NCBI RefSeq assembly: GCF_001293685.1
Contig: NZ_BCAG01000003.1
Span: 1,426,001 to 1,490,000 of the forward strand
Direction of reading: 5' to 3'
Source: Desulfatitalea tepidiphila
Lineage (GTDB): Bacteria > Desulfobacterota > Desulfobacteria > Desulfobacterales > Desulfosarcinaceae
DNA: 64,000 nt
The stretch's first letter is position 1. Every line of letters begins with the position of its first letter. The notes under the pieces are model-generated. The model was not told the DNA's origin, ran no database searches, and worked only from the letters and a program-made list of their open reading frames with translations. The position numbers were made by a program, and so were the translations under genes. Shown piece by piece: positions 46,483 through 63,536 of this stretch.

Positions 46483-46551
46483 ATGGATCTTGAAGGGCAG
46501 ATGCTATTCAGGAATGCATTACTTGTGTGAATAGCGGCATACCGATTTGAT

Positions 46552-46928
46552 GGAAACTTGCGTTTCACATTGTCGATTCTCAGTCCATCCGCTGGTTTTG
46601 TCGAATCGGCCTGGCCGACGAGGGATTCAAAAAGTCGGCGTTGAACAAAAACATCAAAGCTCTTTCGGAACAAACCTGGCAAGCGATCAATGGCCGGATC
46701 CTGGGATATGCCAAGAAGGAGAACATTGAAAAGGGGCGCACCGTGCGGGTGGATTGCACCTGCGTTGAGTCCAACATCCACGATCCAAGAGATTCGAATC
46801 TTTTGTGGGATGCAATTCGCGTGTTGACGCGCCTGATTGAGCGATGCCGCCAGGAGGGCATCAAGGTGCCCGGATTTTCCAATCACACCCGCGTTGCCAA
46901 ACGGCGCATGATCGGGACGCTGCGATGA
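46552..46928 (+). pseudogene. ISNCY-type transposase N-terminal remnant
   Basis: The frame FHIVDSQSIRWFCRIGLADE, then GFKKSALNKNIKALSEQTWQ, TVRVDCTCVESNIHDPRDSN and LLWDAIRVLTRLIERCRQEG is the front part of an ISNCY-like transposase. It lacks a start codon and ends in a stop right after NHTRVAKRRMIGTLR, where the catalytic part should follow. It lies between the multi-glycosyltransferase gene and the right direct repeat, so the island has IS debris at both ends. Confidence 0.65.
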
Positions 46929-46940
46929 ATCCCATCAGCA

Positions 46941-47146
46941 TGGATCTTGTCAGTCGGAACCCTATTGAAATTTTCGCTTTGAGACCAATCTTGTTTGATC
47001 GAAACCCGTACTAACGACATTGGCAAGCAGCCCCAAAAGACATATGAACACCGGGAAATTCATATCGGGTACCACAGGAAGCTGAGCAAATGACCGAACC
47101 CCAACAACACTTGTCGCTCGTGTGCGATATCGGTGAATTGTCCAAC
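46941..47146 (+). repeat. Right ~200-bp direct repeat (ptsP leader, copy B)
   Basis: Matches 20,281-20,490 (copy A). It covers the presumed promoter region, leader and first ~19 codons of the intact ptsP. The differences between copies are substitutions and small indels, with more of them within codons of copy A, as expected if A is the decaying one. Confidence 0.88.
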
Positions 47147-49375
47147 CTGATCATCGAGAGCAGGGACATCAACGCGTTTCTGCAGCAGACCGTCCAATTG
47201 GTGGCGGCGCATCTCCATGCAGATGTGGGCTCTATTTATCTTTATGATGATGATCTTGGGGAGCTTACCCTCAAGGCCACCGTGGGCCTCGATTCATCGT
47301 CTGTGGGGAAGGTCCGTATGAAGATCGGGGAGGGGCTGGTCGGGACCACCATGGCCCAGATGGCCCCCCTTTGCGACGGCGATGCCCGTCAACATCCTCA
47401 ATTCAAATATTTTGTCGAAACAAAGGAGGATCCCTTCAAGTCCTTTCTTTCCGTACCGATTCACCGAGGCGCGGAGAAAATCGGCGTATTGGTCGTGCAG
47501 CATCGCGAGGCCGATTTTTTCGATACGTCCGACATCATGGCCCTGCGTGCGATTGCCGCCCAGTTGGCCGGCACCATCGCCAGTGCCCGTCTGATGATGG
47601 ATCTGCCAAAACCCAAGGCCAAGGCCGGCGGTGCCGATCGTGTTTTGAACGCTTTGCGCATCGTCAAGGGCGAGGCAACCGTTCCTGGGTATGCGCTGGG
47701 GCCTGGGGCTTTGCTTCGACCGGTCGATCCTTTGCTCACGGAAACCCCTGACAGCGTATTTCACAATTCGCTCGACGGCTACCGAAAGGCCAAGCAGGAG
47801 ACCCTGGATCAGCTCAAATTGTTACAGGAGCGTCTGGTACTGCAGTTACCCGAGAGCGCCGCCTTGATTTTCGAAGCGCACAACATGATCTTGAAGGACC
47901 GCCGCTTCGACGCCCAGGTGTCGGAGTGTATTCGAGATGGAAAGACGGCGGCCGATGCCGTGCGCCGGACGGCCCTTCACTTTGCCCAGATCTTTGAAGC
48001 CAGTTCAAGCCCCTACATAAGGGAAAAATCCCAGGACATCATGGACCTGGCCCGCCGTCTGCTTTTCAACCTGCAAAAGGAGAAAGCGGGAAACGCCAGC
48101 CCCATGGATGCCCACATCGTGATTTCATCCCAGCTCTTTCCGTCGGATGTCCTGAAATTGGCTTCCGAATCGGTGGCCGGCATTATTTTCGTCGGCGGCG
48201 GTATTACCTCGCACGTCGCCATTATCGCCCGATCCCTGAAAATCCCGATGATCATCACATCGGAAGTGCGATTGCTTCAAGTGCCGGAAGAGACCCAGGT
48301 GTTGATGGATGCCGATGTGGGGAACATCTATATCAACCCCACACAAGAGGTCTTGCGCCCATTCGAGGAACGCAATCGAACGAGAAAACACATCTCCGCC
48401 GGCCCGCTGATCGTGGCAGATGAAACGTTTACCGCCGATGGTGTTCGGGTTCACCTTCTGGCCAACATCAATCTGCTCGGTGAGCTGTCGCTGGCCCGGG
48501 AACTCAAGGCGGAAGGGGTTGGGCTCTATCGGTCCGAATTTCCTTTTATCGTTCGGTCGGTGCTTCCATCGGAAGAAGAGCAGCGCCTTGTTTATGCCCG
48601 CCTTTTCGAGCAGATGGCAGGCCTGCCGATTTACATCCGCACCTTGGATATCGGCGGAGATAAGGTGCTGCCCTATCTCGATCTTCCCCAGGAAGCCAAT
48701 CCGGAACTCGGGCTGCGTTCCATCCGTTTCCTGTTGAAGCATCGGGAGGTGTTCGATCAGCAACTGCGCGCTATCTTGCGAGCCGGGCGGGATGCCGACC
48801 ATTTAGGGATCATGTTTCCCATGATTGCCTCCATGGACGAGTTCGCCGCGGCGCGTCAAGCCCTGGAACAGGCGATATCGTCATTGGACACGGAAAATTT
48901 GCCTCATCACACGAATCCTTTAGTGGGCGCGATGATTGAAATGCCGGCGGTGCTGAGTGTCATCGATGAGTTGGCCGCTGCGGCTGACTTTTTTTCCATC
49001 GGTACGAACGATTTCATTCAGTATATGTTGGCGGTCGACCGGACCAACGAAAACGTAGCCGACTATTACCGGGCTTTTCATCCGTCCGTTTTGCGGGCCC
49101 TGGCCGGCATCGTGGCCAGCGTGTCCGCCCATCACAAGCCGATTTCCGTTTGTGGAGAGGTGGCACACGATCCGGAGTTCATTCCCTTTTTGCTGGGTAT
49201 CGGTGTGCGGCGACTGAGCGTCGATCCCCAGTTTATACCCTCCGTTCAGAAAACCGTCGCTTCGACTTCCGTTTCCTCTGCTCAAGACTATGCGAAATCC
49301 CTTTTGGCTGTGCCGACCGTGAAGCAGGTGGACGAATTGAGGTGTCAATGGCACATTCGGCGGGATGCTCGATAA
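47090..49375 (+). CDS. ptsP: Phosphoenolpyruvate-protein phosphotransferase PtsP (nitrogen PTS enzyme I) with GAF domain
   Basis: A 761-aa EI-Ntr. The N-terminal GAF domain covers about residues 18-165 (LIIESRDINAFLQQTVQLVA...VGSIYLYDDDLGELTLKATVG). The PTS enzyme I part follows: phospho-His375 (GGGITSHVAIIARSLKIPMI), the PEP-binding barrel (GLYRSEFPFIVR, YIRTLDIGGDKVLPYL, FSIGTNDFIQYMLAVDRTNE) and Cys688 (SVCGEVAHDP). It passes phosphate from PEP to NPr and on to regulatory PTS proteins that tune nitrogen, potassium and surface-polymer physiology. The first ~19 codons lie in the repeat that flanks the island. The cNMP/PilZ gene follows after 190 bases. Confidence 0.92.
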   Translation: MTEPQQHLSLVCDIGELSNLIIESRDINAFLQQTVQLVAAHLHADVGSIYLYDDDLGELTLKATVGLDSSSVGKVRMKIGEGLVGTTMAQMAPLCDGDARQHPQFKYFVETKEDPFKSFLSVPIHRGAEKIGVLVVQHREADFFDTSDIMALRAIAAQLAGTIASARLMMDLPKPKAKAGGADRVLNALRIVKGEATVPGYALGPGALLRPVDPLLTETPDSVFHNSLDGYRKAKQETLDQLKLLQERLVLQLPESAALIFEAHNMILKDRRFDAQVSECIRDGKTAADAVRRTALHFAQIFEASSSPYIREKSQDIMDLARRLLFNLQKEKAGNASPMDAHIVISSQLFPSDVLKLASESVAGIIFVGGGITSHVAIIARSLKIPMIITSEVRLLQVPEETQVLMDADVGNIYINPTQEVLRPFEERNRTRKHISAGPLIVADETFTADGVRVHLLANINLLGELSLARELKAEGVGLYRSEFPFIVRSVLPSEEEQRLVYARLFEQMAGLPIYIRTLDIGGDKVLPYLDLPQEANPELGLRSIRFLLKHREVFDQQLRAILRAGRDADHLGIMFPMIASMDEFAAARQALEQAISSLDTENLPHHTNPLVGAMIEMPAVLSVIDELAAAADFFSIGTNDFIQYMLAVDRTNENVADYYRAFHPSVLRALAGIVASVSAHHKPISVCGEVAHDPEFIPFLLGIGVRRLSVDPQFIPSVQKTVASTSVSSAQDYAKSLLAVPTVKQVDELRCQWHIRRDAR

Positions 49376-49565
49376 GTCCTGGCCTGCCGGTCGCCGTCGT
49401 GATCTCATGCCTCAAGACAAGGGGAGAACCGGCCGATAACCATACTGCGCCCGGTCTGGATGCTCCCCGGAATCGTGTCGAAAGCGATACCGGCCCGTCA
49501 AGGGAAAGGGAGGTCGATAGCACAGAGCGCAAAAAAAGGGCGATCGCCCTGTGAAGGTTCGTAAT

Positions 49566-50582
49566 ATGCCGACATTATTGGAACACGAAACACGCTTGAA
49601 GGATCTTATAGAGGCCGGCCAGACCGAACAGGCCGTGAAACTGCTTTGTCAGTTGGTGGCCTTCTGCGCTCGGAACCAGGATTTCGAAAGAGCCGATGCC
49701 TTTCGCGACCAGCTCTATGAAGTGGACAGCATGGCGCTGACGGCGATCGTCAAGATGAACGAGATCATCGAATCCGAGAAGAGCAAGGCGTTGACGCCGG
49801 ACCGCAGGCGACTCTGGTCCCGGTTTTTCGAAACGCTGCCCGGTGAGGAGGCCAACGCGTTTTTTTTCGCTCTCAAGGAACGCGGCGTTCCCATCGACAC
49901 GATGATCCTGCGTCAAGGCGAGCGAAACGACAAGCTTTATCTGGTGGAAAAAGGGCAGTTGAAAGTCGTCCACGAAAGGGAGGACAAGCAACAGCTCATT
50001 CAGACCATTGGCAGCGGCGATGTGATCGGGGAGGACACATTTTTCTCCATCAATGTCTGCACCGCATCGGTCACTGCATTGACCGAGGTCAAGCTCTCCT
50101 TCCTGGAGAGGGAACGACTCGACGGTATCACGATCCAGCACCCGCGGATCGAGCAGCGGTTGCAAAAGATCTGCGGCACAGGACGCAGGATCTATGATTG
50201 GTTGCGCCAAAAGGGGTTGGACAGGCGCGCCTGCAAGCGCATCAATTTAAGCACGCCGATCTGGTTTCAGGTGTTGAGTTCCGGTAAGGGCACATCGGTT
50301 TCGCGTCCGGTGGCCGGCGAGTTGTGGGATATTTCCAAATCCGGGCTCTCCTTTTATTTCCAGTCCAAAAACCGAGAGGCGGTCAGTCGGCTGGTGGGGC
50401 GAAGTATCGGTGTGCGTTTCAAGTTGACGGTCGACGGCAAATTGAAGGATGTCGCCCTTACCGGTATCGTTCAGGGCGTTCAGGATCATCCGTTGGACGA
50501 GTATTCCGTGCATCTCATGCTGCGGAAGCAATTCAGCGATGATGCCATTCGAACCATCCAGCGGGTCGCAGATAGATCCTGA
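49566..50582 (+). CDS. Cyclic nucleotide-binding and PilZ domain protein
   Basis: About 338 aa from the ATG at 49,566 (GAAGG upstream); a GTG 15 bases earlier is possible. The N-terminal ~95 residues are helical (two TPR-like helices). A cNMP-binding/Crp-like beta roll lies at about 105-215 (MILRQGERNDKLYLVEKGQLKVVHE and GSGDVIGEDTFF). The C-terminal ~110 residues are a PilZ domain with R-R-A-C-K-R (RxxxR type) and W-D-I-S-K-S-G (DxSxxG). No DNA-binding helix-turn-helix is seen. It could join a cyclic mononucleotide and c-di-GMP signal in one protein; a cyclase fusion lies at 59,261. Confidence 0.82.
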   Translation: MPTLLEHETRLKDLIEAGQTEQAVKLLCQLVAFCARNQDFERADAFRDQLYEVDSMALTAIVKMNEIIESEKSKALTPDRRRLWSRFFETLPGEEANAFFFALKERGVPIDTMILRQGERNDKLYLVEKGQLKVVHEREDKQQLIQTIGSGDVIGEDTFFSINVCTASVTALTEVKLSFLERERLDGITIQHPRIEQRLQKICGTGRRIYDWLRQKGLDRRACKRINLSTPIWFQVLSSGKGTSVSRPVAGELWDISKSGLSFYFQSKNREAVSRLVGRSIGVRFKLTVDGKLKDVALTGIVQGVQDHPLDEYSVHLMLRKQFSDDAIRTIQRVADRS

Positions 50583-50594
50583 GCGACAGTTCGC

Positions 50595-50912
50595 TTATCC
50601 TCCGAAATTTCCAGCACCGAGTCCGCGCATGGCCTCTTCCGCAGTGACGCGCAAGGTGGCAAGGGATTTGTTGTAGGCATCCCTTTCGCTTTGAATGTCT
50701 TCCATGCAGGTATCGGGAGAACATTTGTCCCGGATTTGATCGATGCGGTCATCCAGTTCGGCGATGAGCATATGCAGGTCTTCGATGTTTGGAAGTATCT
50801 TGGACTTTTCACCACCAGGCAGACTTTCCATCTTCCGGGTAATGTCATAGATGATGGCTTTCCAGCTGGTGAGCTCCATTTCCATGGTCTTGCAACAATT
50901 TCTGGCTTTCAT
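50595..50912 (-). CDS. Small helical Cys-containing protein (105 aa), unknown
   Basis: I start it at the ATG at 50,912 (AAAGGAGCACATC upstream); the frame is open 33 bases further. Cys pair near the N-terminus (RNCCKTM) and a C-SPDT-C motif in the middle, otherwise charged helices (NIEDLHMLIAELDDRIDQIR) that may form a coiled coil; the end is Gly-rich. It follows the transporter gene on the minus strand by 36 bases and is probably the last gene of that operon. No family recognised. Confidence 0.55.
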   Translation of the reverse strand: MKARNCCKTMEMELTSWKAIIYDITRKMESLPGGEKSKILPNIEDLHMLIAELDDRIDQIRDKCSPDTCMEDIQSERDAYNKSLATLRVTAEEAMRGLGAGNFGG

Positions 50913-50948
50913 GATGTGCTCCTTTCTTTGGGATTGACATTCCATTAT

Positions 50949-52592
50949 TTAAAGCGAAGCCGCAGTTCGGGCCTGACCCGATGCTTCCGCCGATGCTTCA
51001 CTTTTGACCCCTTGAACACCATGCTCCCTCGGCAAGCGAACGACCATCACCGGCAGGTCACTGTGCCGGATCACATCCGCGGCCACGCTGCCGATGATAC
51101 GATCTTCGAACTTGCCATGCCCATGGGTGCCCATGATGATGAGATCATACCGCCCCTTTCTCGCCGAAGAGACGATGCAATCCGCTGGGTTTCCGGTCTG
51201 CACAAGGATATTCTCATCGGCCAACGGACACCTGGGCATCTGTTGGGTTACGCTTTTTGAGGTTTCGTGAATCCTCTGGTGAATGGCCTGCTGCGCTTTT
51301 TCGACACCGTTTCGGTTGAATCGTTCCCATTCGCGCTTGTCAATGTGATCGGCCAGATTGATGCCGGCCCCTTTGGACAACTCATCCAGGATGTCCGGAA
51401 TGACATGAAGCACAGTGACTTCCGCATCGTAGCGGTGGCCAAGGCTGCACGCATATCGGACTGCATGGCGAGCCGTTTCGGAAAGATCCGTGGCATAGAG
51501 GATCCTTTTGAAATCCGGAACCAGCGACTCACCATCTGCCTTTGGCATCTCTTCGGGTATACGGCGCCCAATAGCCTCCTGCTGGACCAGCCTGACCGGT
51601 GCAGGTACGGCTTTGGCAACCGTAGCGCCGAAAATGAAATCCACGAAGCGTACATACCAGGCGGCCGATTGGATCTGGATCACATAGGCCAGGGCGATGA
51701 GCAGCGCAATGGTCAGACCTTGTTTCCCAAAGGCGGTCATGGCGATGGCCAGCGCAATGGACAGGTCCCGCATGACGACCCCGAACACCATGGCAATACC
51801 ATCTTCGCGCTTGAAAAAGAGGCGACCGGCGACGGACAGGAAGACGTAGGTCGCCAAGTAGAAGATGGCCAGAGGGATCAAGATGGCGATGATGTCGCCC
51901 GGGTTGTCGATGATATTTCTGGCCTTCAGCGCCATGGCCACAAAAGCGATCAAAATGACGCCCAATGCAGAAAAGGGAGGGAACTTCGTCTTGATGCGCT
52001 CGTTCCAGGCTTTAGGGCCATATTTTTTGATGGCGATATATTGTGTCAACAATCCCATGACCAGCGGCAGAAAGACAAAAAGGGCAATCTGCTGGAACAT
52101 GTGAAGCATGTCCACATCGATGGTGGCGCCCATGAACAGTTTGGTATAGATCGGTGCCGCCAGGGCACCCAGGACCAACCCGAAAATGACCATTTTAATG
52201 GCCGCTTCCTTGTTGCCCTTGGCAAAGCCGGTCCATGAAATGGTCATGCCCGAGGTGGGCAGCACACCGATCAAAAAGAGCCCTACCGCCCAGAGGCCGT
52301 GTTTTTCGAGACCCGTGGAGAAAAATAATCTTCCGGTATAGTAGGCCAGCAGGGGGATGATGATAAAGTTGATGGCCTGGGTGAACACCTGCAGTTTATA
52401 ATCTTGGCCTTTGAATACGCATTTCACACTCAAGGTCACCATCATCGGGTAGACCATGGCGAAGGTCACCGGAATGATCGATTGCTTCAGAGGGGAGGCG
52501 TCGAAAAGGTAGCCGTACAGGAGCCCTGCAAGCATGGAGATGGGTATCGACCAGACCAGGTTTTTTTGCAGCATCGAAAGAAAACGCCACAT
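50949..52592 (-). CDS. SBF/ACR3-like membrane transporter fused to universal stress (Usp) domain
   Basis: A 547-aa protein starting at 52,592 after AAGGAGATCACTTC. Residues ~5-320 hold about ten hydrophobic helices of the bile acid:sodium symporter/ACR3 superfamily (IPISMLAGLLYGYLF; ILIAFVAMALKARNII; VFGVVMRDLSIALAIAMTAF). Residues ~360-525 form a Usp domain (RILYATDLSETARHAVRYAC ... MGTHGHGKFEDRIIGS, the G-x2-G-x9-G-S ATP-binding signature) that should be cytoplasmic. The substrate is unknown; ACR3 relatives move arsenite, SBF relatives organic acids, and no arsenic genes are nearby. The Usp part suggests nucleotide-gated control. It is in the sigma-54 operon of the TusA-like and DUF1638 genes. 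Confidence 0.85.
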   Translation of the reverse strand: MWRFLSMLQKNLVWSIPISMLAGLLYGYLFDASPLKQSIIPVTFAMVYPMMVTLSVKCVFKGQDYKLQVFTQAINFIIIPLLAYYTGRLFFSTGLEKHGLWAVGLFLIGVLPTSGMTISWTGFAKGNKEAAIKMVIFGLVLGALAAPIYTKLFMGATIDVDMLHMFQQIALFVFLPLVMGLLTQYIAIKKYGPKAWNERIKTKFPPFSALGVILIAFVAMALKARNIIDNPGDIIAILIPLAIFYLATYVFLSVAGRLFFKREDGIAMVFGVVMRDLSIALAIAMTAFGKQGLTIALLIALAYVIQIQSAAWYVRFVDFIFGATVAKAVPAPVRLVQQEAIGRRIPEEMPKADGESLVPDFKRILYATDLSETARHAVRYACSLGHRYDAEVTVLHVIPDILDELSKGAGINLADHIDKREWERFNRNGVEKAQQAIHQRIHETSKSVTQQMPRCPLADENILVQTGNPADCIVSSARKGRYDLIIMGTHGHGKFEDRIIGSVAADVIRHSDLPVMVVRLPREHGVQGVKSEASAEASGQARTAASL

Positions 52593-52615
52593 GAAGTGAT
52601 CTCCTTTTCACAGTC

Positions 52616-53269
52616 TTACGACATGAGCTTTTGCGCTTGGTCCAGAAGCAGTTGCTTGAGTCGATCGAGAGAGACTGGGTACGGAATGAGCGGTATGCCC
52701 ATCCAATCGGAATATCCGAGAAAGCCTTCCGGATCGTTGGCCATGAATTCGTCCATATAACCGATGGCATCCAGGACGATGGCTCCGCCGGTGTGTTTGG
52801 GGAAATTCTCGTTGGCCAGGGCCTGGTCCCACCCCTTGAACACCTCTTTCTTGAACTTGATCCATCCCGGGGTCATCCACCATACCGGTTCGCCTCCGGC
52901 CATCTCCTTGCCAATGCGATCACGCTCGGATTGGCTGGCGATCATGTCCATGCAGTGGGTGGCTTCGATCCTGGCGACCTTGGGGCCCTGTTCTTCCACG
53001 ATATGTTTCATCAGGCGGGTCGGCTGATCGATATTCACGTAGCAGAATTTACCGCCATATACGACGATGACCTTTTCGGTTTTTTCCTTGGCCTTTTGGA
53101 TCCGGCGCACCAGCTGGCGCTCCAGTTCCGGCGGGTCCTGGTGGAGACCGGGGGTCGTGTAAAGAATCTGGGGCGTGTCCAGAAATCCTTCCTTCTTCAG
53201 TGCATTGAGTTCAAGATTCAATGTGCCGCAAGAGACGATGGAAATGTCGGAAAAAGAGATAGTGTTCAT
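52616..53269 (-). CDS. DUF1638-family protein
   Basis: A 217-aa soluble protein. Family segments: SIVSCGTLNLELNALKKEGF, ILYTTPGLHQDPPELERQLV, KVIVVYGGKFCYVNIDQPTR and EATHCMDMIASQSERDRIG, then WWMTPGWIKFKKEVF. Cys15, Cys and His in the middle (GKFC, THCMD) are possible metal or cofactor ligands. DUF1638 proteins are known from methanogens and deltaproteobacteria, often close to corrinoid methyltransferase genes, but have no established reaction. It lies 15 bases downstream of the TusA-like gene and 23 before the transporter. Confidence 0.8.
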   Translation of the reverse strand: MNTISFSDISIVSCGTLNLELNALKKEGFLDTPQILYTTPGLHQDPPELERQLVRRIQKAKEKTEKVIVVYGGKFCYVNIDQPTRLMKHIVEEQGPKVARIEATHCMDMIASQSERDRIGKEMAGGEPVWWMTPGWIKFKKEVFKGWDQALANENFPKHTGGAIVLDAIGYMDEFMANDPEGFLGYSDWMGIPLIPYPVSLDRLKQLLLDQAQKLMS

Positions 53270-53284
53270 GGTCTGTCATCCTTT

Positions 53285-53512
53285 TTATTTCTTAAGAAGT
53301 CGAATAAAGAAGCCGTTTATCTCGCTAACCGCCTGATCCAGGAGGAAGATTTCGTATTCCCGCCGGGGCAGGATGCATTGCAGATCTTTTTCTACGGTGG
53401 CATCTGGGCAGATGATATCCACGACTTCCCCTGATTTCATTCTTTTAAAGTGGTTACTGATTTGAAGCAGTGAAAAAGGAATGATCGATTCACGCATATC
53501 AAATGTCGTCAT
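53285..53512 (-). CDS. TusA-like protein lacking the catalytic Cys
   Basis: A 75-aa protein from the ATG at 53,512 (an ATG 78 bases upstream is unlikely because the sigma-54 promoter overlaps it). The fold pattern of TusA/SirA is recognisable: F-D-M-R-E-S-I-I-P-F-S-L-L-Q-I, then GEVVDIICPDATVEKDLQCI. In TusA the site is D-x-R-G-x-x-C-P-x-P; here C and the first P are replaced (ESIIPF), so sulfur transfer by that Cys is not possible. Two other Cys remain (IICP and LQCI). First gene of the minus-strand sigma-54 operon. Confidence 0.65.
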   Translation of the reverse strand: MTTFDMRESIIPFSLLQISNHFKRMKSGEVVDIICPDATVEKDLQCILPRREYEIFLLDQAVSEINGFFIRLLKK

Positions 53513-53571
53513 CTCGATTACCCTTACTGATATCGATCTCTTGATATCGCTGGTATTGTCACTTTTCCGAT

Positions 53572-53590
53572 TGTGCAAGCGGGATGCCAC
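53572..53590 (-). promoter_or_regulatory. Sigma-54 promoter of the TusA-like/DUF1638/transporter operon
   Basis: On the minus strand: GTGGCATC-CCGC-TTGCAC; GG at 53,588-53,587 and GC at 53,576-53,575 with exact 10-base spacing, 60 bases before the ATG at 53,512. It is a full match to TGGCAY-N5-TTGCW. Confidence 0.78.
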
Positions 53591-53714
53591 GAGAAAATTA
53601 CGGTATCAACAGCCCGATAGGGCCTTGGTTGGCCTTTCCGGATGTCATTGAAGCTTGTTGGCCAAAAAATGAAAGGTGGCCTCTTGTCTCCAAACTGTTC
53701 ATGTGTTAATTATT

Positions 53715-53733
53715 TTAACGTTTAAAATGTTAA
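53715..53733. promoter_or_regulatory. Interrupted palindrome between regulator and its target operon
   Basis: TTAAC-GTTTAAAAT-GTTAA, five-base arms 9 bases apart, embedded in AT-rich sequence, 20 bases before the regulator ATG and about 125 bases upstream of the minus-strand sigma-54 promoter. It is in a good place to be an enhancer or autoregulatory site for the activator; no proof. Confidence 0.4.
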
Positions 53734-53752
53734 CAAACTGAACGGAACTGTC

Positions 53753-55138
<1,386 letters not shown>

Positions 55139-55201
55139 ACGGTTGACGGATGTTCCATAACCGGCAGACGTGCTCAGCGCATCAAAATGCGTTTGGGAGT
55201 T

Positions 55202-55218
55202 TTGGCATCATTACTGCA
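55202..55218 (+). promoter_or_regulatory. Sigma-54 promoter of the fmdB-like/RACo-like/ferredoxin operon
   Basis: TTGGCATC-ATTA-CTGCA: GG at 55,204-55,205 and GC at 55,216-55,217 with exact spacing; the -12 box is CTGC instead of TTGC. It is 126 bases before the first ATG. Confidence 0.7.
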
Positions 55219-55270
55219 ATATGACCTGTCAAGCTTGGCAGCGAGATCCATCTCTTTACCTCCGTTGTGA

Positions 55271-55302
55271 GGGCCTGAAAGGGTGAGGTACCCTTCAGGC
55301 CC
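55271..55302 (+). promoter_or_regulatory. Strong hairpin in the leader of the fmdB-like operon
   Basis: GGGCCTGAAAGGGT and ACCCTTCAGGCCC pair over 13 bp (one bulge) in the untranslated leader between the sigma-54 promoter and the ATG at 55,344. There is no T-run after it. It may stabilise the mRNA, hide an upstream transcript or act in attenuation; it could also end the regulator transcript. Confidence 0.55.
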
Positions 55303-55343
55303 TTCACAATAATAGAGTCCCTGGCTGCAATGAAGGAGAAGAA

Positions 55344-55541
55344 ATGCCCATTTACGAGTACCAATGTAAAAAGTGCCATCACTGTTTTGAGAGAATTGTA
55401 TTTTCGAGCGACGAGTCAGAAAAGATCGAATGCCCCAAATGTGGCCACAAGGAAGTCACACGATTAATCAGTTGCGTGAGCGCGTTTGAAGGCGCCAAAA
55501 GCGGCTTTTGTTCTCCGGGTTCTTCCTCGGGCTTTTCATGA
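55344..55541 (+). CDS. FmdB-family zinc-ribbon protein
   Basis: A 65-aa protein: MPIYEYQCKKCHHCFERIVF, then EKIECPKCGHKEVTRLIS, the FmdB/CxxC-CxxC putative regulatory zinc-ribbon pattern, with a Ser-Gly-rich tail (FCSPGSSSGFS). AAGGAGAAGAA precedes the ATG. FmdB proteins were named from methanol/formamide operons and may be regulators or chaperones; the real function is not known. First gene of the plus-strand sigma-54 operon. Confidence 0.85.
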   Translation: MPIYEYQCKKCHHCFERIVFSSDESEKIECPKCGHKEVTRLISCVSAFEGAKSGFCSPGSSSGFS

Positions 55542-55608
55542 GCCGGTTGAACCCTTGGTAGCGGTCCGCTACTCAATCACAGAGGCCAAAATCGAAGAGA
55601 GGTCCAGC

Positions 55609-57690
55609 ATGGGACAATGCCTTTGCCATCCTGAAGTGGAGACCAGTTATCTCTGCATGAAGCACAACGTCTATCTGTGCGATGACTGCCTCACTTGCCG
55701 TGATCCGGATATCTATTGTAAATTTCGGCCATCCTGCCCGATCTGGTTTATGAGCAAGCGAAAGGAAGGGTGGGATGCCGAATCCGCAGAACAGGTGAAC
55801 GCCTCGACGTTTCAGATAGAGTTCCAGCCGGAGAATAAGACGGTATCGGTACCTGTCGGCAGCACCCTGATCGAAGCGGCCAACGCGGCCGGCGTCTTCA
55901 TCAACGCGTCCTGTAACGGGAAGGGGGCTTGCGGCAAATGCAAACTGGTCGTGGTTTCGGGCAAATCCGAAACGACTCCCACCCCGTTGCTCAGCGTCCA
56001 GGAAAAGGCCAAAGGTTACGTGCTGGCCTGTCAGACGAAAATCACCGGCGACCTGGCCGTGCGGATTCCCGAAGAGTCGCTTCAGCAGCGCCTGAAGGTG
56101 GCCGGCATGGGTGAATCCGCCACCGCCAGACTCAAAGGATTGGTCCCGAATATCGAGCCCATGCTCAAGGAAGTGCATCTGACGCTCTCACCACCGACCC
56201 TGGACGACTCGGTGAGCGACCTGGACCGGCTTCAGCGCGGGCTGAAGGCTCAGGGGTGCGATCTGGAATGCCTGAACGTGGGGCTCCGCGTCATCCGGCA
56301 GTTATCCGAGGCTGTGCGCAAGGACAACTGGAAGGTCACCGCTTCGGTGATCCGCCGGAAATGCGCCAATGAGATCCTTGAGGTCCGACCGGGCGGTGAG
56401 GGGGATCGCGCCCTCGGGCTGGCCATCGACGTGGGCACCACCACCATCGTCGTCTACCTGGTGGATATGGCGGATGCAACCATTCTCGGCGCCGCATCCG
56501 GGCACAACCGTCAGGCATCCTGCGGCGACGATGTGATCAACCGCATCGTCTGTGCCGAAAAGGATGGGGTCCAGAAGCTCAGTCGAATGGCCTTGGCCAC
56601 CATCAACAGCCTGATCGGAGAAACGTTGGACAGCGTGGGAGCGGATACCGACGACATCAGGAACGTCGTCATCTCGGGCAATACGACCATGGCGCACTTG
56701 CTGCTGAAAATTGAGCCCCGCTATATCCGCCGGGAGCCTTACATCCCGACCATTTCGGAGTTTCCTATCCTGAAGGCCGGTGACATCGGGATCAGGGCCA
56801 ATGCCATCGCCGCCGTCTTCGTCATGCCCGGGCCGGCCAGTTATGTGGGCGGCGATGTCGTTTCCGGTCTGCTCTACGCCGGTTTCCATCGCCAGGAAGC
56901 CATCACGTTGTTCATCGACGTGGGCACCAACGGAGAGATCGTGGTCGGCAACAACGAGTGGTTGATGACAGCCGCGTGCAGCGCGGGGCCGGCCTTCGAA
57001 GGCGGCGGCATCCGCTGGGGCATGCGGGCCGAAGAGGGCGCCATAGAGCAGATCACCATCGATCCGGACACATGGGCGCCGACCTTTGTCACGGTCGGCG
57101 GCAACGCCCCACGCGGCATTTGCGGCTCCGGCATGATCGACCTGATGTCCGAACTGCTCAATGCCGGGGTCATCGATCGCCGCGGCAAATTCTCCACGGA
57201 CCGTGAGAGCCGATTCGTTCGCCATATCAACGGCGAGTGGGCCTATGAGCTGGCGCCCGCCGATCAAACCCCCATGAACGAAGAGATCATCTTCACCGAG
57301 TCGGATATAAGAAACCTGATTTACAGCAAAGGGGCGGTATATGCAGGATTCACGACCCTGTTGAAGGTGGCTGGACTCGATTTTTCAGTGGTCGAAAAGG
57401 TGATCATCACCGGCGGTTTCGGCCAGTACATCAACATCGAAAAAGGAGTTCGCATCGGATTGCTTCCCGATATCGAGCGCGACAAATTCGTCTACCTCGG
57501 CAACAGCTCCATCGTGGGAGCTTACATGGCCCTGCTTTCCGAGGTACATCGCCGCGAAGCCGCGCAGGTGTGCAAACAGATGACCTATATCGATTTCTCC
57601 AGCCATCCGGGCTACATGGATGACTTCACTTCGGCATTGTTCCTGCCCCACACGAACCTGGAGATGTTTCCGAGTGTGGTTGGCTTTTAA
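55609..57690 (+). CDS. RACo-like ASKHA protein (corrinoid reductive activator family) with Cys-rich N-terminus
   Basis: 693 aa from the ATG at 55,609. Residues 1-48 hold nine Cys and two His (MGQCLCHPEVETSYLCMKHN, YLCDDCLTCRDPDIYCKF), a likely zinc or FeS module that the usual activators lack. Residues ~62-145 are a 2Fe-2S ferredoxin domain (NASCNGKGACGKCKLVV and a later ACQT). Then a linker (about 150-280) and the DUF4445/ASKHA ATPase (LGLAIDVGTTTIVVYLVDMA, SGNTTMAHLLL, FIDVGTNGEIVVG, IITGGFGQYINIEKGVRIGL). RACo enzymes spend ATP to reduce Co(II) corrinoid proteins; no corrinoid protein is in this window, so the partner must be elsewhere. Confidence 0.82.
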   Translation: MGQCLCHPEVETSYLCMKHNVYLCDDCLTCRDPDIYCKFRPSCPIWFMSKRKEGWDAESAEQVNASTFQIEFQPENKTVSVPVGSTLIEAANAAGVFINASCNGKGACGKCKLVVVSGKSETTPTPLLSVQEKAKGYVLACQTKITGDLAVRIPEESLQQRLKVAGMGESATARLKGLVPNIEPMLKEVHLTLSPPTLDDSVSDLDRLQRGLKAQGCDLECLNVGLRVIRQLSEAVRKDNWKVTASVIRRKCANEILEVRPGGEGDRALGLAIDVGTTTIVVYLVDMADATILGAASGHNRQASCGDDVINRIVCAEKDGVQKLSRMALATINSLIGETLDSVGADTDDIRNVVISGNTTMAHLLLKIEPRYIRREPYIPTISEFPILKAGDIGIRANAIAAVFVMPGPASYVGGDVVSGLLYAGFHRQEAITLFIDVGTNGEIVVGNNEWLMTAACSAGPAFEGGGIRWGMRAEEGAIEQITIDPDTWAPTFVTVGGNAPRGICGSGMIDLMSELLNAGVIDRRGKFSTDRESRFVRHINGEWAYELAPADQTPMNEEIIFTESDIRNLIYSKGAVYAGFTTLLKVAGLDFSVVEKVIITGGFGQYINIEKGVRIGLLPDIERDKFVYLGNSSIVGAYMALLSEVHRREAAQVCKQMTYIDFSSHPGYMDDFTSALFLPHTNLEMFPSVVGF

Positions 57691-57703
57691 GGAGGTCCGA
57701 TAC

Positions 57704-58684
57704 ATGTCACTCTCACGCAGAACCTTTCTAAAAACCGGTGTGGCCGCTGCCTGCGCGGCTTGCGCATCCCAAGTGCCGAAAACCGCGTCCGCCGAACAAC
57801 CCAGGGTGAAGGAGCTGGCCACCTTGATCGATATCCGTAAATGCATCGGGTGCGAGGCGTGTGTGGAAGCATGCCGCGATGCCAACGCGGACAAATACCC
57901 GGATCCCAAAAAACCCTATCCCAAAATGTATCCTTCCCGGGTCAAGGTCGAGGATTGGTCCGACCCGGAGGGCCGGGAGACCCGCGATCGGCTGACTCCT
58001 TACAACTGGCTCTTCATCCAGGAAGTCACCGTCACCCACAATGGCGAAGAGATAACCATGACGATTCCCAGGCGTTGCATGCACTGCCAGAATCCGCCCT
58101 GCGCCGATCTTTGTCCATGGGGCTCGGCCCGTAAACTCAAGAACGGCATCACGGTAATCGATGCGGACCTGTGCCTGGGCGGCGCCAAATGCAAATCGGT
58201 CTGCCCATGGGACGTGCCTCAACGCCAGACCGGGGTCGGCATGTACCTGGACCTGTTGCCCGCATTTGCCGGCAACGGGGTCATGTACAAGTGCGATCGA
58301 TGCTACAACCGCATCGCAGAAGGCGAACTGCCGGCCTGCATCGAGGAGTGCCCAGAGCAGGTTCAAACCATCGGTCCCAGGGATGAGATTCTGCGCGAAG
58401 CTCACCGGCTCGCCGAGTCCGAAGATCTTTATATTTACGGAGAACACGAAAACGGCGGCACCAACACCATTTATCTCTCGCCCGTTCCGTTCGAGCTGAT
58501 CAACCAGGCCATCCAGCAAGGGGAAGGCAAGCCCCATATGAATGCGGTGGCCGATCAAATGGCCCACGCCGACAACCTGGCCAAGGCCATGGTCATCGCC
58601 CCGATTGCCGGAGTGGCGGCCGCCGTCGGAAGAGTCTACAAGGCCATCAAAACCTCGGAAGAGAAGCAGGAGGTGACCAGGTGA
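57704..58684 (+). CDS. Tat-exported multi-FeS electron-transfer subunit (FdnH/DmsB type)
   Basis: 326 aa from the ATG at 57,704 (GGAGG upstream). Tat signal SRRTFLKTGVAAACAACASQ. Four Cys motifs: CIGCEACVEACRDAN; CMHCQNPPCADLCPWG; CLGGAKCKSVCPWD; and CDRCYNRIAEGELPACIEEC. In the third, the second Cys is Gly (C-L-G-G), so that site may bind a 3Fe-4S or a changed cluster. A hydrophobic helix near the end (AKAMVIAPIAGVAAAVGRVY) should anchor it in the membrane, as in FdnH. No catalytic molybdenum subunit is next to it. Together with the next gene it forms a periplasm-to-membrane electron path. Confidence 0.87.
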   Translation: MSLSRRTFLKTGVAAACAACASQVPKTASAEQPRVKELATLIDIRKCIGCEACVEACRDANADKYPDPKKPYPKMYPSRVKVEDWSDPEGRETRDRLTPYNWLFIQEVTVTHNGEEITMTIPRRCMHCQNPPCADLCPWGSARKLKNGITVIDADLCLGGAKCKSVCPWDVPQRQTGVGMYLDLLPAFAGNGVMYKCDRCYNRIAEGELPACIEECPEQVQTIGPRDEILREAHRLAESEDLYIYGEHENGGTNTIYLSPVPFELINQAIQQGEGKPHMNAVADQMAHADNLAKAMVIAPIAGVAAAVGRVYKAIKTSEEKQEVTR

Positions 58685-59163
58685 GCCGACCGATTTTGCC
58701 CAATAAGACCATCGCGGAACAAGTCTGGATCAAGCCGGTCTATATCTTGATATTTCTATTGATGGGGTTGACCGGATTTGCCCAGATGCCAATTTTCAAG
58801 CGGTACTATATCGCCGATATCCCCGGCCTGGGGTGGCTGGATCAGTATTACGTGACGCACACCATTCACTATCTGGGCGCCATCGCGTTGTTGGCCCTGA
58901 TTGCATATGGCCTGGTGACCTACTGGGCCTTACTGCGTAAGCAATACCGCCTGACGGTTCTGGCCTGGATACGCGTCGCGCTGCTGGCCGGCATTGTCGG
59001 CACCGGTATCTTCCGCGTCCTGAAAAACCTCCCGGATGTGGTCTTCTCGCCGGGGTTTACCATGTTCATCGATATCGCCCACCTGGGCTTCATGATGGCT
59101 TACCTCGTCATGGCTGGCGTTGCCTTAGTCGCCAAAAAAAGATGGCTGACGGCCAAGGTTTGA
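58681..59163 (+). CDS. Small membrane electron-transfer subunit (FdnI/cytochrome b561-like)
   Basis: A 160-aa protein with four hydrophobic helices: about residues 19-36 (PVYILIFLLMGLTGFAQ), 60-84 (THTIHYLGAIALLALIAYGLV), 95-115 (VLAWIRVALLAGIVGTGIF) and 128-150 (FIDIAHLGFMMAYLVMAGVAL). His residues in helix 2 (HTIH) and helix 4 (AHLG) could hold a heme b. The GTG start overlaps the stop of the FeS gene. It is likely the quinone-side anchor. Confidence 0.75.
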   Translation: MSRPILPNKTIAEQVWIKPVYILIFLLMGLTGFAQMPIFKRYYIADIPGLGWLDQYYVTHTIHYLGAIALLALIAYGLVTYWALLRKQYRLTVLAWIRVALLAGIVGTGIFRVLKNLPDVVFSPGFTMFIDIAHLGFMMAYLVMAGVALVAKKRWLTAKV

Positions 59164-59260
59164 TGCGATACGGCCATGCCGGACGGATTCATCCCTGATG
59201 ACATTTGACTGACAGGCGTTATGTTGAGCCCATCAAACAATGTTGCGTCAGGGTGGAGGC

Positions 59261-60589
59261 ATGGCAGCTAAAACAAAATATGCAAAAAGTGGCGATGTGC
59301 ACATTGCCTATCAGGTGGTGGGCCATGGAAACCTGGACCTGGTCGTCGTACCGGGCTTCGTGTCCCACGTCGAGTACATCTGGGAAGAGCCCAGGGCGGC
59401 CCGTTTCCTGAATGGCTTGACCGATTTTGCCCGTTTGATCCTGTTCGATAAGCGGGGAACCGGACTCTCCGACCGCGTGGGTACCGTGCCGACCCTCGAA
59501 GATCGCATGGATGACGTGCGTGCGGTCATGGATGCCGCCGGGTCATCCCAGGCCGTCGTCATGGGGATTTCCGAAGGTGGCCCCCTGGCGCTCCTTTTTG
59601 GCGCGACCTATCCCCAGCGAACGGCGGCATTGATCATTTACGGCAGCTTCGCCCGGGCCATCCGCACAGCCGATTATCCTCACGGCATCAGCGAGCAAGA
59701 GTTGTCCACTTTCATCGATCACCTGGAGCGGCACTGGGGCGGACCATGGGGCGTGCGTCATTGGGCGCCCAGCCTTCAGGGCGATATCGCCTTTCGAAAC
59801 TGGTGGGCCGCCTTTCTTCGGTTAGCCGCCAGTCCTGGAGCAGCGGCGACCACTTTGAAAATGCTCATGGAGATCGATGTCCGCCACATCCTGCCGGCGA
59901 TCCAGATCCCCACGCTCGTCGTGCATGCCTCCAGGGATCGCATGCTCAGCATCGCCCATGCCCATTACCTCGCCGATCATATTCCCGGAGCCAAATTGGT
60001 CGAGGTGGACAGCGAAGACCATTTTCCATTCATTGCCGCACCGGATCTGATCGTCGGAGAAATCGAAGAATTTCTCACCGGCGCCCGCCATGAAAAGGAA
60101 TCCGACCGCGTACTGGCAACCATCCTCTTTTGCGATATCGTCGATTCAACCAATATGGCCGCCGCCAAGGGGGACCGCATTTGGCGTGATCTTCTCGAGC
60201 AGTATTATCAGCTGGTCAGAAAAGAGCTGAGCCTTTTCCGAGGCATGGAAATCGACACAGCCGGCGACGGACTGCTGGCCGCCTTCGACGGGCCGGCCCG
60301 CGCCATCCGCTGTGCCCGCCAATGTGCCGCGAAGGTGCACACGCTCGGACTGAGATTGCGCGCCGGTTTGCATACCGGCGAGTGTGAAAGGATCGGTGAC
60401 AAGCTGAGCGGTATTGCAGTGCACATCGGTGCCCGTATTGTTCAACACGCTCAACCCGATGAGGTCCTAGTATCCGGCACGGTTCGCGACCTGGTGGTAG
60501 GATCAACGATTCAATTTGAAAATCGGGGCAAACACATCCTCAAGGGCGTTCCCCAGGAGTGGCAGCTGTTCGCCGTGACATCTGCGTGA
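59261..60589 (+). CDS. Alpha/beta hydrolase fused to class III nucleotide cyclase
   Basis: 442 aa from the ATG at 59,261 (GGTGGAGGC upstream). Residues ~5-280 form an alpha/beta hydrolase with the nucleophile elbow G-I-S-E-G-G, acid Asp near HASRDRML and catalytic His in SEDHFPF. Residues ~290-440 are a class III cyclase: metal Asp pair in TILFCDIVDSTNMAA and TAGDGLLAAFDGPARAI; the position that usually bears the adenine-binding Lys is Asp (EIDTAGDG). It has no membrane segment. A small molecule bound or cleaved by the hydrolase part may control cyclic nucleotide making. The cNMP-binding protein at 49,566 is a possible reader. Confidence 0.87.
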   Translation: MAAKTKYAKSGDVHIAYQVVGHGNLDLVVVPGFVSHVEYIWEEPRAARFLNGLTDFARLILFDKRGTGLSDRVGTVPTLEDRMDDVRAVMDAAGSSQAVVMGISEGGPLALLFGATYPQRTAALIIYGSFARAIRTADYPHGISEQELSTFIDHLERHWGGPWGVRHWAPSLQGDIAFRNWWAAFLRLAASPGAAATTLKMLMEIDVRHILPAIQIPTLVVHASRDRMLSIAHAHYLADHIPGAKLVEVDSEDHFPFIAAPDLIVGEIEEFLTGARHEKESDRVLATILFCDIVDSTNMAAAKGDRIWRDLLEQYYQLVRKELSLFRGMEIDTAGDGLLAAFDGPARAIRCARQCAAKVHTLGLRLRAGLHTGECERIGDKLSGIAVHIGARIVQHAQPDEVLVSGTVRDLVVGSTIQFENRGKHILKGVPQEWQLFAVTSA

Positions 60590-60611
60590 TGTGCGATGCG
60601 GCGAGGGGGAT

Positions 60612-61409
60612 TCAGGCATCCATGGTTGCGGTTGTCTGCTTCTCAATCTCGTGAGCAACTATTTGCCGGGCCTTCTCAAATTTTTCAATCAATTGTGTTG
60701 TGTTTTCGGGTGTCAGGGATTTGCCCTCGAACGCCATCATACGGTAGAGTTCTCCGGTCACCCACTTCTTGCTGAAGTAGAGCATGTCCTTGATTTTGAT
60801 CATTTCAATACGCGGGTTGCCGCTGTTTCCCGAAGCACCATGATCATGCACACCTCTTGCTAGGGCGATGCGCCAGATCTCCCATCCTCGCGACCTGGCG
60901 GTAAAGGAATAATCGCTGTCGCTGCCGATAAAGACAAGATTTTTATCCATCAGCCCGATCTCTTCGATCATCTCTCTGCGCAGAATCATGCAGGCGCCGT
61001 TGGCCCAGTAAACCGGCTCGCTCTCTTTAAAACGGTGGAGGGGTCCATGGAGATGTTTTCCCAAGGGAAAGGCATCGAAGCATCCTGCCCAAATCACATA
61101 ATCGGCCTGTTGGGGATGGATTTGAAGGGGGGCGCCGATGCCGCAACGCGGGTTGCGGTTCATGAAGTTGACCATCTCCTCGACTGCGTGGGGTTCAAGG
61201 TACATATCTTGGTTTAACAGGATCATGTATTTGACCGGCTTTTTAAGAAAATGGCGAATCCCTTCATTTATAGCGGCGGTAAAGTAGATGTTGTCCTCTG
61301 AGTTGTTGCGGATGAAGATGTCCACGGGCATGGTTTGGCGCCGGAGATGCAGCAGACATTTATCCAGTTGTGTTCGATTTTTATAAAATGGAATGATGAC
61401 CGGTATCAT
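60612..61409 (-). CDS. GT2-family glycosyltransferase (rhamnosyltransferase-like)
   Basis: A 265-aa GT-A enzyme: MIPVIIPFYKNRTQLDKCLL, IFIRNNSEDNIYFTAAINEG, the metal-site-like LLNQDMYLEP and a later GSDSDYSFTARSRGWEIWRI, as in WbbL-like transferases. It shares a four-base overlap with the upstream gene (61,406), so both are in one operon that continues to the window edge. Product glycan unknown. Confidence 0.82.
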   Translation of the reverse strand: MIPVIIPFYKNRTQLDKCLLHLRRQTMPVDIFIRNNSEDNIYFTAAINEGIRHFLKKPVKYMILLNQDMYLEPHAVEEMVNFMNRNPRCGIGAPLQIHPQQADYVIWAGCFDAFPLGKHLHGPLHRFKESEPVYWANGACMILRREMIEEIGLMDKNLVFIGSDSDYSFTARSRGWEIWRIALARGVHDHGASGNSGNPRIEMIKIKDMLYFSKKWVTGELYRMMAFEGKSLTPENTTQLIEKFEKARQIVAHEIEKQTTATMDA

Positions 61410-63358: not shown

Positions 63359-63536
63359 AATGAAAGCCTAAGATGCTGACTTGTTTTGCCCTGAAAAAGT
63401 AAAAGTATTTATATTTCAAAACAAATCAATAAATTCACTTTACAGCCTTTGGTATATTTCCTTAAAATAAGAATAAAAGATAATTGGCCCACTTAGGTAA
63501 TGTTATCGTACAATTACACAACACCTCTTCCAGATA

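What the first reader, a model, noticed from the sequence alone, without database searches (positions are those of the whole stretch)
50595..59163. Undescribed sigma-54 redox/transport module built around a Cys-rich PAS regulator
Seen: one PAS/sigma-54 activator (53,753) with six Cys in its PAS domain; a divergent minus-strand operon (Cys-less TusA-like, DUF1638, SBF/ACR3-Usp transporter, small Cys protein) with a full-match sigma-54 promoter; and a plus-strand operon (FmdB, RACo-like ASKHA protein, Tat multi-FeS protein, membrane anchor) with a second sigma-54 promoter. Known: RACo proteins reduce corrinoids with ATP; FdnH/FdnI-like pairs carry electrons between periplasm and quinones. Inferred: a regulon that imports or exports a solute and sends electrons to a corrinoid- or FeS-dependent reaction when the PAS sensor fires. 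The combination, with no catalytic subunit, is not a pathway I know.
Basis: partly seen in the sequence, partly recalled or inferred. Interest (0 to 1): 0.85.

Follow-up and report, generated by a model that had tools for sequence, protein, structure and literature searches.

The report
Sulfur-linked sigma-54 regulon of sulfate reducers
A gene-control block shared by several related sulfate-reducing bacteria appears to tie a cysteine-rich sensor to sulfur-handling and vitamin-B12-reactivating genes; this strain seems to have lost two of the sulfur genes, and some relatives carry a possible small RNA next to it.

Summary
Genes and both sigma-54 promoters are real, and the block is not strain-specific. 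Nine loci (window plus eight relatives) keep the regulator divergent from a TusA-fold gene without the catalytic Cys; all nine have sigma-54 promoters (at most 1 mismatch) on both sides of the regulator. Five of six PAS cysteines are invariant in 11 of 11 orthologues read.

The 'missing catalytic subunit' is largely explained: the nearest relative has DsrE and a CoA-persulfide-reductase-like enzyme between the TusA-like gene and DUF1638; here that ~2.2 kb is deleted. DUF1638 and RACo-type proteins resemble a published B12-reactivation pair. Of two corrinoid families searched, this genome has CoFeSP but not B12-binding_2. I read a redox/sulfane-sulfur regulon that protects corrinoid enzymes; signal and solute are inferred.

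Unexpected: ten of 13 genomes of a sister genus carry a sigma-54-driven, terminator-ended RNA candidate (~110 nt) with CCUCC motifs, six of them right behind this regulator. The window's counterpart is shorter, is not matched by the model, and may be a leader.

The parts
50595..50912 (-). small Cys-containing protein (smCys), no known family
   Evidence: ORF 50595-50945; likely start at an ATG behind a Shine-Dalgarno sequence, 50912; 65-99% identical matches beside SBF-Usp in relatives, the 65% one partial
50949..52592 (-). SBF (bile acid symporter family) transporter fused to a Usp domain
   Evidence: Pfam SBF 2.2e-25, Usp 2.6e-27; at least 70% identical over at least 520 residues in 7 of 30 family genomes, own included
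52616..53269 (-). DUF1638 protein, predicted B12-reactivation partner
   Evidence: Pfam PF07796 3.1e-21; matches at E <= 1e-20 in 35 of 395 phylum genomes, own included; model pLDDT 94.5
53270..53284 (.). deletion junction: DsrE and CoADR-rhodanese genes (about 2.2 kb) absent here but present in the nearest relative
   Evidence: blastn halves meet within an A-rich stretch; genes in L036
53285..53512 (-). degenerate TusA-like protein without the CPxP cysteine
   Evidence: profile finds TusA 3lvj at 6e-4; model closest to a SirA-like protein, TM 0.74, and TusA, TM 0.70, though methyltransferase fragments score similarly; Cys absent in 10 of 10 rows
53574..53589 (-). sigma-54 promoter of the divergent operon
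   Evidence: full match; conserved in 9 of 9 loci
53705..53719 (+). operator copy 1, GTTMA-N5-TKAAC
53729..53743 (+). operator copy 2, 24 bp from copy 1
53753..55138 (+). one-component sigma-54 activator with a Cys-rich PAS domain
   Evidence: Pfam; five invariant PAS Cys
55203..55218 (+). sigma-54 promoter after the regulator gene
   Evidence: one mismatch; a promoter after the regulator in 9 of 9 loci
55229..55318 (+). candidate short RNA or leader: ACCTCC (55258-55263), then hairpin 55264-55310
   Evidence: fold z-score -4.65; comparable place to the RNA candidate of relatives, but not matched by their covariance model
55344..55541 (+). FmdB-type zinc ribbon protein
   Evidence: TIGR02605 2.9e-17
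55609..57690 (+). RACo-type ATP-dependent corrinoid activator with an extra Cys-rich N-terminal domain (55609-55770)
   Evidence: Pfam RACo domains; PDB 3zyy 2.6e-164 and 4c1n; the N-terminal domain has no Pfam match and also occurs apart from RACo in relatives
57704..58684 (+). Tat-exported multi-4Fe-4S electron-transfer protein
   Evidence: Fer4 and TAT_signal; ATG behind AAGGAGG; matches at 58% identity or more in 12 of 30 family genomes, own included
58681..59163 (+). small membrane protein with conserved histidines, likely quinone-side anchor
   Evidence: paired with the Tat protein in relatives; conserved His

Best explanation
This is one sigma-54 regulon. SHOWN by comparison: the one-component PAS activator gene has a pair of conserved operators just upstream of its start, and sigma-54 promoters lie on both sides of it. 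INFERRED: the PAS cysteines hold an Fe-S cluster or are modified by persulfide, and the activator fires when the cytosol is oxidised or loaded with sulfane sulfur. It then drives (a) the divergent operon (degenerate TusA as adaptor or sensor subunit, DUF1638, SBF-Usp transporter, small Cys protein, and in relatives DsrE plus a CoA-persulfide-reductase-like enzyme) and (b) FmdB, a RACo-type ATPase and a Tat Fe-S/membrane electron-transfer pair. RACo and DUF1638 return oxidised corrinoid to Co(I), here most likely on CoFeSP; the sulfur-relay genes reduce or detoxify sulfane sulfur. In this strain the DsrE-reductase step is deleted, leaving the corrinoid-reactivation and transport arms.
For: Promoters on both sides in 9 of 9 loci. 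Operator twice in 64 kb, both at the regulator (0 of 100 shuffles reach two), exact in 7 of 8 relatives; half-sites 50 per 675 nt there against 8 per 1450 nt in the rest of the nine spacers. Five PAS Cys invariant in 11 of 11. Sulfane-sulfur or thiol families recur beside these regulators: DsrE, CoADR-rhodanese (matches CoA-persulfide reductase 8a56 and 3nta), OsmC, Trx, DUF302, TusA. DUF1638 and DUF4445 mutants share methionine-synthase phenotypes (PMC5764234 passages; prediction in PMC12478193, passage). RACo matches 3zyy/4c1n. Two PF03599 (CoFeSP-family) matches in the genome; B12-binding_2 none, control ringing in 9 of 14. One relative's divergent cluster runs on into MetV- and MetF-type genes.
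Against: No expression or biochemical data. The nine loci were chosen for the divergent TusA-like gene; three further loci with a 54-61% identical regulator (L043, L105, L099) show none, and two (L201, L202) hold only a regulator fragment. The window's second promoter has no operator copy nearby, and L098 has no exact copy. DUF1638 and RACo occur with different partners in different lineages. CoFeSP genes lie on another contig. The RACo protein scores 681 bits, below the AcsV cut-off of 800. Only two corrinoid-protein families were searched for. The Cys cluster may bind Zn or nothing.
Confidence: 0.45

Rival explanations
1. A C1 (Wood-Ljungdahl/methyl-tetrahydrofolate) regulon: the regulator senses methyl-group or low-potential electron status; RACo, DUF1638, Hdr-type and MetVF genes are its core and the sulfur-relay proteins serve thiol or homocysteine chemistry.
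For: MetV/MetF-type and Hdr-type genes follow the divergent TusA operon in L203; RACo and DUF1638; CoFeSP family in the genome.
Against: MetVF was annotated in one relative only; the type-A loci more often hold DsrE, Trx or reductase genes; no corrinoid methyltransferase was seen in the block.
Confidence: 0.18
2. A general oxidative or disulfide stress regulon in which sulfur and corrinoid repair are incidental.
For: Usp domain, OsmC, Trx, CoA-disulfide reductase; AhpC/TSA peroxiredoxin pieces near L092, L053 and L048 genes; Co(I) corrinoids are oxidation-sensitive (PMC6739815, start of abstract in a listing).
Against: The peroxiredoxin genes lie 1-8 kb away beside paralogous regulators, none in the nine type-A rows labelled; I made no search for catalase, rubrerythrin or superoxide reductase, so their absence is unknown.
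Confidence: 0.15
3. A dissimilatory sulfur (thiosulfate, S0, polysulfide) uptake module like the YTD cluster, with SBF-Usp as the sulfur-species transporter.
For: TusA-fold protein, DsrE (relatives) and a transporter together; a DUF302-type gene near SBF in 6 of the 9 named loci other than L036 (Pfam tested on one); YTD clusters combine a permease, TusA and DsrE (PMC13293266 and PMC9751629, passages).
Against: The transporter is SBF, not YedE; the TusA-like protein lacks the catalytic Cys; this strain has lost DsrE and the reductase; RACo and DUF1638 stay unexplained.
Confidence: 0.14
4. In this strain the module is a decaying remnant.
For: Two genes deleted; SBF-Usp or RACo copies are broken into pieces in several relatives.
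Against: The remaining window ORFs are open and the promoters and operators intact; the shared genes of the nearest relative are 91-99% identical and full length.
Confidence: 0.08

Closest known systems
RACo / AcsV (reductive activator of corrinoid Fe-S protein; PDB 3zyy, 4c1n)
   Same: Fer2 + linker + middle + C-terminal ASKHA domain order; match over about 620 residues
   Different: Extra ~54-residue Cys-rich N-terminal domain; not beside the CoFeSP genes; below the AcsV cut-off
DUF1638 + DUF4445 B12-reactivation pair of Phaeobacter methionine synthase (PMC5764234)
   Same: Both families in one block
   Different: This genome gave no B12-binding_2 match, so no MetH-type partner was found
YTD cluster (YedE-TusA-DsrE) of sulfur disproportionators
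   Same: Transporter, TusA fold and (in relatives) DsrE together
   Different: SBF-Usp in place of YedE; degenerate TusA; sigma-54 PAS regulator; corrinoid genes
CoA-persulfide reductase (8a56) and the related 3nta/4ocg enzymes
   Same: CoADR + rhodanese architecture of the gene in L036; L141 has a matching gene
   Different: Deleted in the window
sigma-54-dependent small RNAs tied to an activator (CbrB-CrcZ, Qrr; recalled, no call)
   Same: Activator gene, sigma-54 promoter, short terminator-ended RNA candidate in relatives
   Different: No Rfam match; CCUCC anti-Shine-Dalgarno motifs; no transcript shown

Membership tests
sigma-54 enhancer-binding protein | sigma-54 interaction AAA+ domain, Fis HTH, sensor domain | tested here: met
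   Sigma54_activat 2.4e-69, HTH_8 1.7e-11, PAS_9 2.1e-17
sigma-54 enhancer-binding protein | conserved operator-like repeats near sigma-54 promoters | tested here: met
   binding itself not testable here
RACo family | Fer2 + RACo linker, middle and C-terminal domains | tested here: met
   PDB 3zyy 2.6e-164
AcsV (NF040756) | score over the curated cut-off of 800 bits | tested here: not met
   681 bits; the own-genome paralogue L055 scores 687
TusA sulfurtransferase | TusA fold | tested here: met
   3hz7 TM 0.74, 3lvj TM 0.70 at E 0.001-0.007, with methyltransferase fragments scoring similarly; profile hit 6e-4; Pfam TusA 17.9 bits, under its cut-off of 28.6
TusA sulfurtransferase | CPxP catalytic cysteine | tested here: not met
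   absent in 10 of 10 rows; the motif itself is recalled
ACR3 arsenite efflux transporter | score over the TIGR00832 cut-off | tested here: not met
   90.8 against 282.8 bits
DUF1638 | Pfam gathering score | tested here: met
   76.4 against 27 bits
YTD cluster | YedE-type permease with TusA and DsrE | tested here: not met
   SBF transporter, Cys-lacking TusA fold, DsrE deleted
known RNA families (Rfam 15) | match at the gathering score | tested here: not met
   0 matches in window 44000-64000 and in 5 relatives' loci
RNA element of genus g2 (model R1) | window element matches the covariance model | tested here: not met
   no window match at E <= 5 among 76 sources

The most novel reading that the evidence does not exclude
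The Cys-rich PAS activator senses sulfane sulfur through a persulfide or Fe-S switch, helped by a TusA fold that has lost its catalytic cysteine and acts as a signalling subunit. It turns on corrinoid repair together with sulfur detoxification, and also a sigma-54-dependent small RNA whose CCUCC loops block ribosome-binding sites: a sulfur-to-B12 regulatory circuit with its own sRNA, reshaped in this strain by loss of the persulfide reductase.
Probability: 0.25. Interest if true: 0.8.

Novelty: new variant of a known kind. Interest (0 to 1): 0.6.

Why it matters
Sulfate reducers meet sulfide, polysulfide and oxygen while running oxygen-sensitive corrinoid chemistry. A regulon that ties sulfane-sulfur handling to ATP-dependent corrinoid reactivation would show how the two are kept compatible. 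It also gives DUF1638, SBF-Usp fusions, the RACo N-terminal Cys domain and Cys-rich PAS activators a testable context: an operator, two promoters and a candidate RNA.

Tried and rejected
Arsenite efflux (ACR3): rejected on score. Mobile or phage origin of SBF-Usp: a viral-contig scan matched 5 stretches, none a relative. MetH or methylamine-type corrinoid partner in this genome: no B12-binding_2 match. DUF1638 function by fold: Foldseek gave no hit at E <= 0.001; the weak ones (arylmalonate decarboxylase, BchN-BchB, PrpR sensor) are not usable; by sequence nothing better than E 0.11. Phylum-wide RNA search (395 genomes, stricter filters): 9 genomes, E 4e-6 to 0.04. By eye most look like terminator hairpins without the CCUCC part; the best two (L207, L208) lie right behind a 43% identical activator gene, and L215 has an ACCTCCAT, neither followed further. 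Own-genome RACo paralogues: no acs gene among the 10 neighbouring ORFs annotated. An operator pattern with the wrong spacer found nothing and was corrected. The third TGGCAY-N6-TGCW match, 27775-27790, lies inside a glycosyltransferase-like ORF and was set aside.

Caveats and dropped rows. Greedy ORF calls picked some antisense ORFs; conclusions rest on tblastn labels and codon-scored genes. The L200 PAS stretch was read out of frame and left out of the Cys count; its regulator is not matched before residue 30 and its start is unclear, so 'upstream of the regulator' is least certain there. Spacers of L204 and L200 were cut short; L204 was redone and the L200 operators are. The L200 row of A3 is only a C-terminal piece. 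L036 and G003:C109 are one record, L053 and L058 overlap, and each is counted once. After the filing check, odds were changed only for the rivals: stress was raised from 0.12 to 0.15 because of the peroxiredoxin matches, and the C1 and YTD rivals were trimmed from 0.20 and 0.15 to 0.18 and 0.14.
Full report
Origin. The window lies in a 5.6-Mb genome, about 98% complete (G000:C3:1426001-1490000). The closest named record is Desulfatitalea sp. UBA4791, 94% identical at the transporter and 99% at the small Cys protein.

Observation. Start codons need correcting: the TusA-like gene starts near 53512, the small Cys protein near 50912, RACo at 55609, the Tat protein at 57704 (sequence). The promoters are exact at 53589-53574 and one mismatch off at 55203-55218.

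Conserved regulation. I compared nine loci that have the regulator divergent from the TusA-like gene: the window, L140, L141, L142, L058, L098, L200, L203 and L204 (regulator 66-80% identical to the window's). They were chosen for that layout. Of five other loci with a regulator match of 54-61%, three (L043, L105, L099) show no TusA-like gene and two (L201, L202) hold only a regulator fragment. Each of the nine has a sigma-54 promoter with at most one mismatch towards the TusA-like gene (8 of 9; L204, whose spacer had been cut short). Dinucleotide shuffles gave one in 0.1 to 2.3% of trials per locus. Each also has one after the regulator gene, 6-244 nt past its end (in L142 a nearer site has two mismatches). 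Just before the regulator start lies a pair of 15-bp inverted repeats, GTTMA-N5-TKAAC, 24 bp apart in the window. Exactly two occur in the 64-kb window (0.17 expected, 0 of 100 shuffles reach two). At least one exact copy is present in 7 of the 8 relatives; L098 has none. Over 217 loci held, 198 have no match. The window's second promoter, about 1.5 kb away, has no copy beside it; L141 has one there.

Sensor. Cysteines 53, 58, 61, 73 and 86 of the PAS domain are invariant in 11 of 11 orthologues read in frame (54-100% identity over the regulator); C70 is in 7 of 11. L200 was read out of frame and dropped. Paralogous regulators next to OsmC, CoADR and SBF genes have a related Cys pattern. A bound cluster or persulfide is inference.

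Deletion. In the nearest relative (L036) the order is TusA-like, DsrE, CoADR-rhodanese, DUF1638, SBF-Usp, small Cys protein. L141, in the same genus, also has TusA-like, DsrE and a CoADR-rhodanese match in that order. In the window the two flanks, 93.4 and 93.6% identical to L036, meet inside an A-rich stretch and about 2.2 kb is missing. The best own-genome matches to the lost proteins are paralogues: 35% for the reductase, 36% for DsrE. The lost reductase resembles CoA-persulfide reductase 8a56 and 3nta.

Synteny. L140 keeps DsrE, TusA-like, regulator, FmdB, RACo, Tat protein and membrane protein in the same divergent layout. L142 keeps FmdB and RACo; L141 has only the RACo N-terminal domain, then the Tat and membrane proteins. 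In L200, L203 and L204 (genus g2) the regulator is followed by Trx, an old-yellow-enzyme-type flavoenzyme and DUF1638. In L203 the divergent side has the TusA-like gene, TusA, FlpD, Hdr-type subunits, DsrE and MetV- and MetF-type genes. A related regulator (44-46% identical) sits beside OsmC, CoADR, SBF-Usp, small Cys protein, Trx and RACo in several genomes. Among the nine named loci other than L036, a DUF302-type gene lies near SBF in six, from Desulfobulbaceae, Desulfofustis and Desulfuromonadales records (Pfam tested on one). DUF1638 matches occur in 35 of 395 phylum genomes. Full-length RACo with the Cys-rich N-terminal domain occurs in 10 of 30 family genomes, own included.

Corrinoid link. 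In Phaeobacter, mutants in a DUF4445 (RamA-like) and a DUF1638 gene behave like methionine-synthase mutants, and the authors make no specific proposal for DUF1638 (PMC5764234, passages). A 2025 paper calls both predicted cobalamin rechargers (PMC12478193, passages). The window genome gave no B12-binding_2 match (control rings in 9 of 14) but two CoFeSP-family matches; no other corrinoid family was searched. CoFeSP, the known partner of RACo (recalled), is therefore the likeliest target. DUF1638 models well (pLDDT 94.5) but has no informative structural match. Three cysteines (SCGT, KFCYVN, THCMDM) are conserved in A3, the last in all 24 rows.

TusA-like protein. The catalytic CPxP cysteine is absent in 10 of 10 rows. 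The model is closest to a SirA-like protein and TusA (TM 0.74 and 0.70), though fragments of methyltransferases score nearly as well, and a profile finds TusA at 6e-4. A conserved fold without its catalytic residue suggests an adaptor or signalling role (inference).

A possible RNA. Ten of the 13 g2 genomes searched share a 104-112-nt element behind a sigma-54 promoter: a 5' hairpin showing ACCUCC, a second CCUCC-like motif in most, and a long terminator-like hairpin. It lies right behind a type-A regulator or a fragment of one in 6 of 10 (L200-L204, L058); in L196, L197 and L198 it precedes Trx and DUF1638 without that regulator, and L199 shows neither. On ten sequences 27 pairs are predicted, 11 with change on both sides. 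Four of five measures exceed all 500 shuffles and the fifth is reached by 23; 10 of the 11 pairs are in the terminator hairpin, one in the inner and none in the outer 5' stem, so the 5' hairpin is conserved but not proven by covariation. Similar but divergent elements lie in L098, L147 and L148. The pattern search over 30 family genomes gave 40 matches against 17 for the reversed control; the own genome has one, the window. The model does not match the window, Rfam has no match, and the window hairpin (z -4.65) lacks a U-tract, so there it may be a leader of the FmdB-RACo operon.

Literature. Among the rows listed by searches for DUF1638 with methyltransferase, the Desulfovibrio sigma-54 regulome, the YTD cluster (8 of 9 listed), small RNA with sigma-54 in sulfate reducers, DUF1638/RACo/DUF302/TusA (15 of 28 listed), PAS/cysteine/persulfide/sigma-54 and corrinoid/CoADR/DsrE, no title or shown abstract start describes this block. 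In the D. vulgaris regulome paper a term search found PAS-type activators but no 'corrinoid', 'cysteine' or 'small RNA' (passages). Only this held library was searched.

Verdict. A real, conserved sigma-54 regulon of known protein families in a combination I did not find described. Regulation is well supported; the sulfur and corrinoid roles are plausible; signal and transported solute are open.

Noticed in passing
L203:9639-9749 (-) and nine further g2 loci (L196-L202, L204, L058): Conserved ~110-nt sigma-54-driven RNA candidate with CCUCC motifs, in 6 of 10 right behind the type-A regulator; no Rfam match.
   Followed up: partly
window 55609-55770; L141:9850-10032, L142:10690-10876, L045:6582-6743: The Cys-rich N-terminal domain of RACo also occurs apart from RACo in relatives; no Pfam match.
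   Followed up: partly
L203:11423-20000: TusA-like, TusA, FlpD, Hdr-type subunits, DsrE and MetV/MetF-type genes in one run, divergent from the regulator.
   Followed up: partly
L143-L146, L150, L152: The Tat Fe-S protein and its membrane partner occur as a pair with no RACo match nearby, so they look like a separable electron-transfer unit.
   Followed up: partly
L092:7452-7748, L053:177-593, L048:1994-2389: AhpC/TSA peroxiredoxin pieces 1-8 kb from DUF1638 or RACo genes.
   Followed up: partly
L207, L208: RNA-model hits immediately behind a 43% identical activator gene in other genera.
   Followed up: no
window 24586-26052: DDE transposase (Pfam DDE_Tnp_1_4 1.1e-30).
   Followed up: no
window 59240-60589: alpha/beta-hydrolase fused to a nucleotide cyclase domain right after the block.
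   Followed up: no
L105:6937-9072: Multihaem cytochrome c gene near a 57% identical regulator and DUF1638.
   Followed up: no
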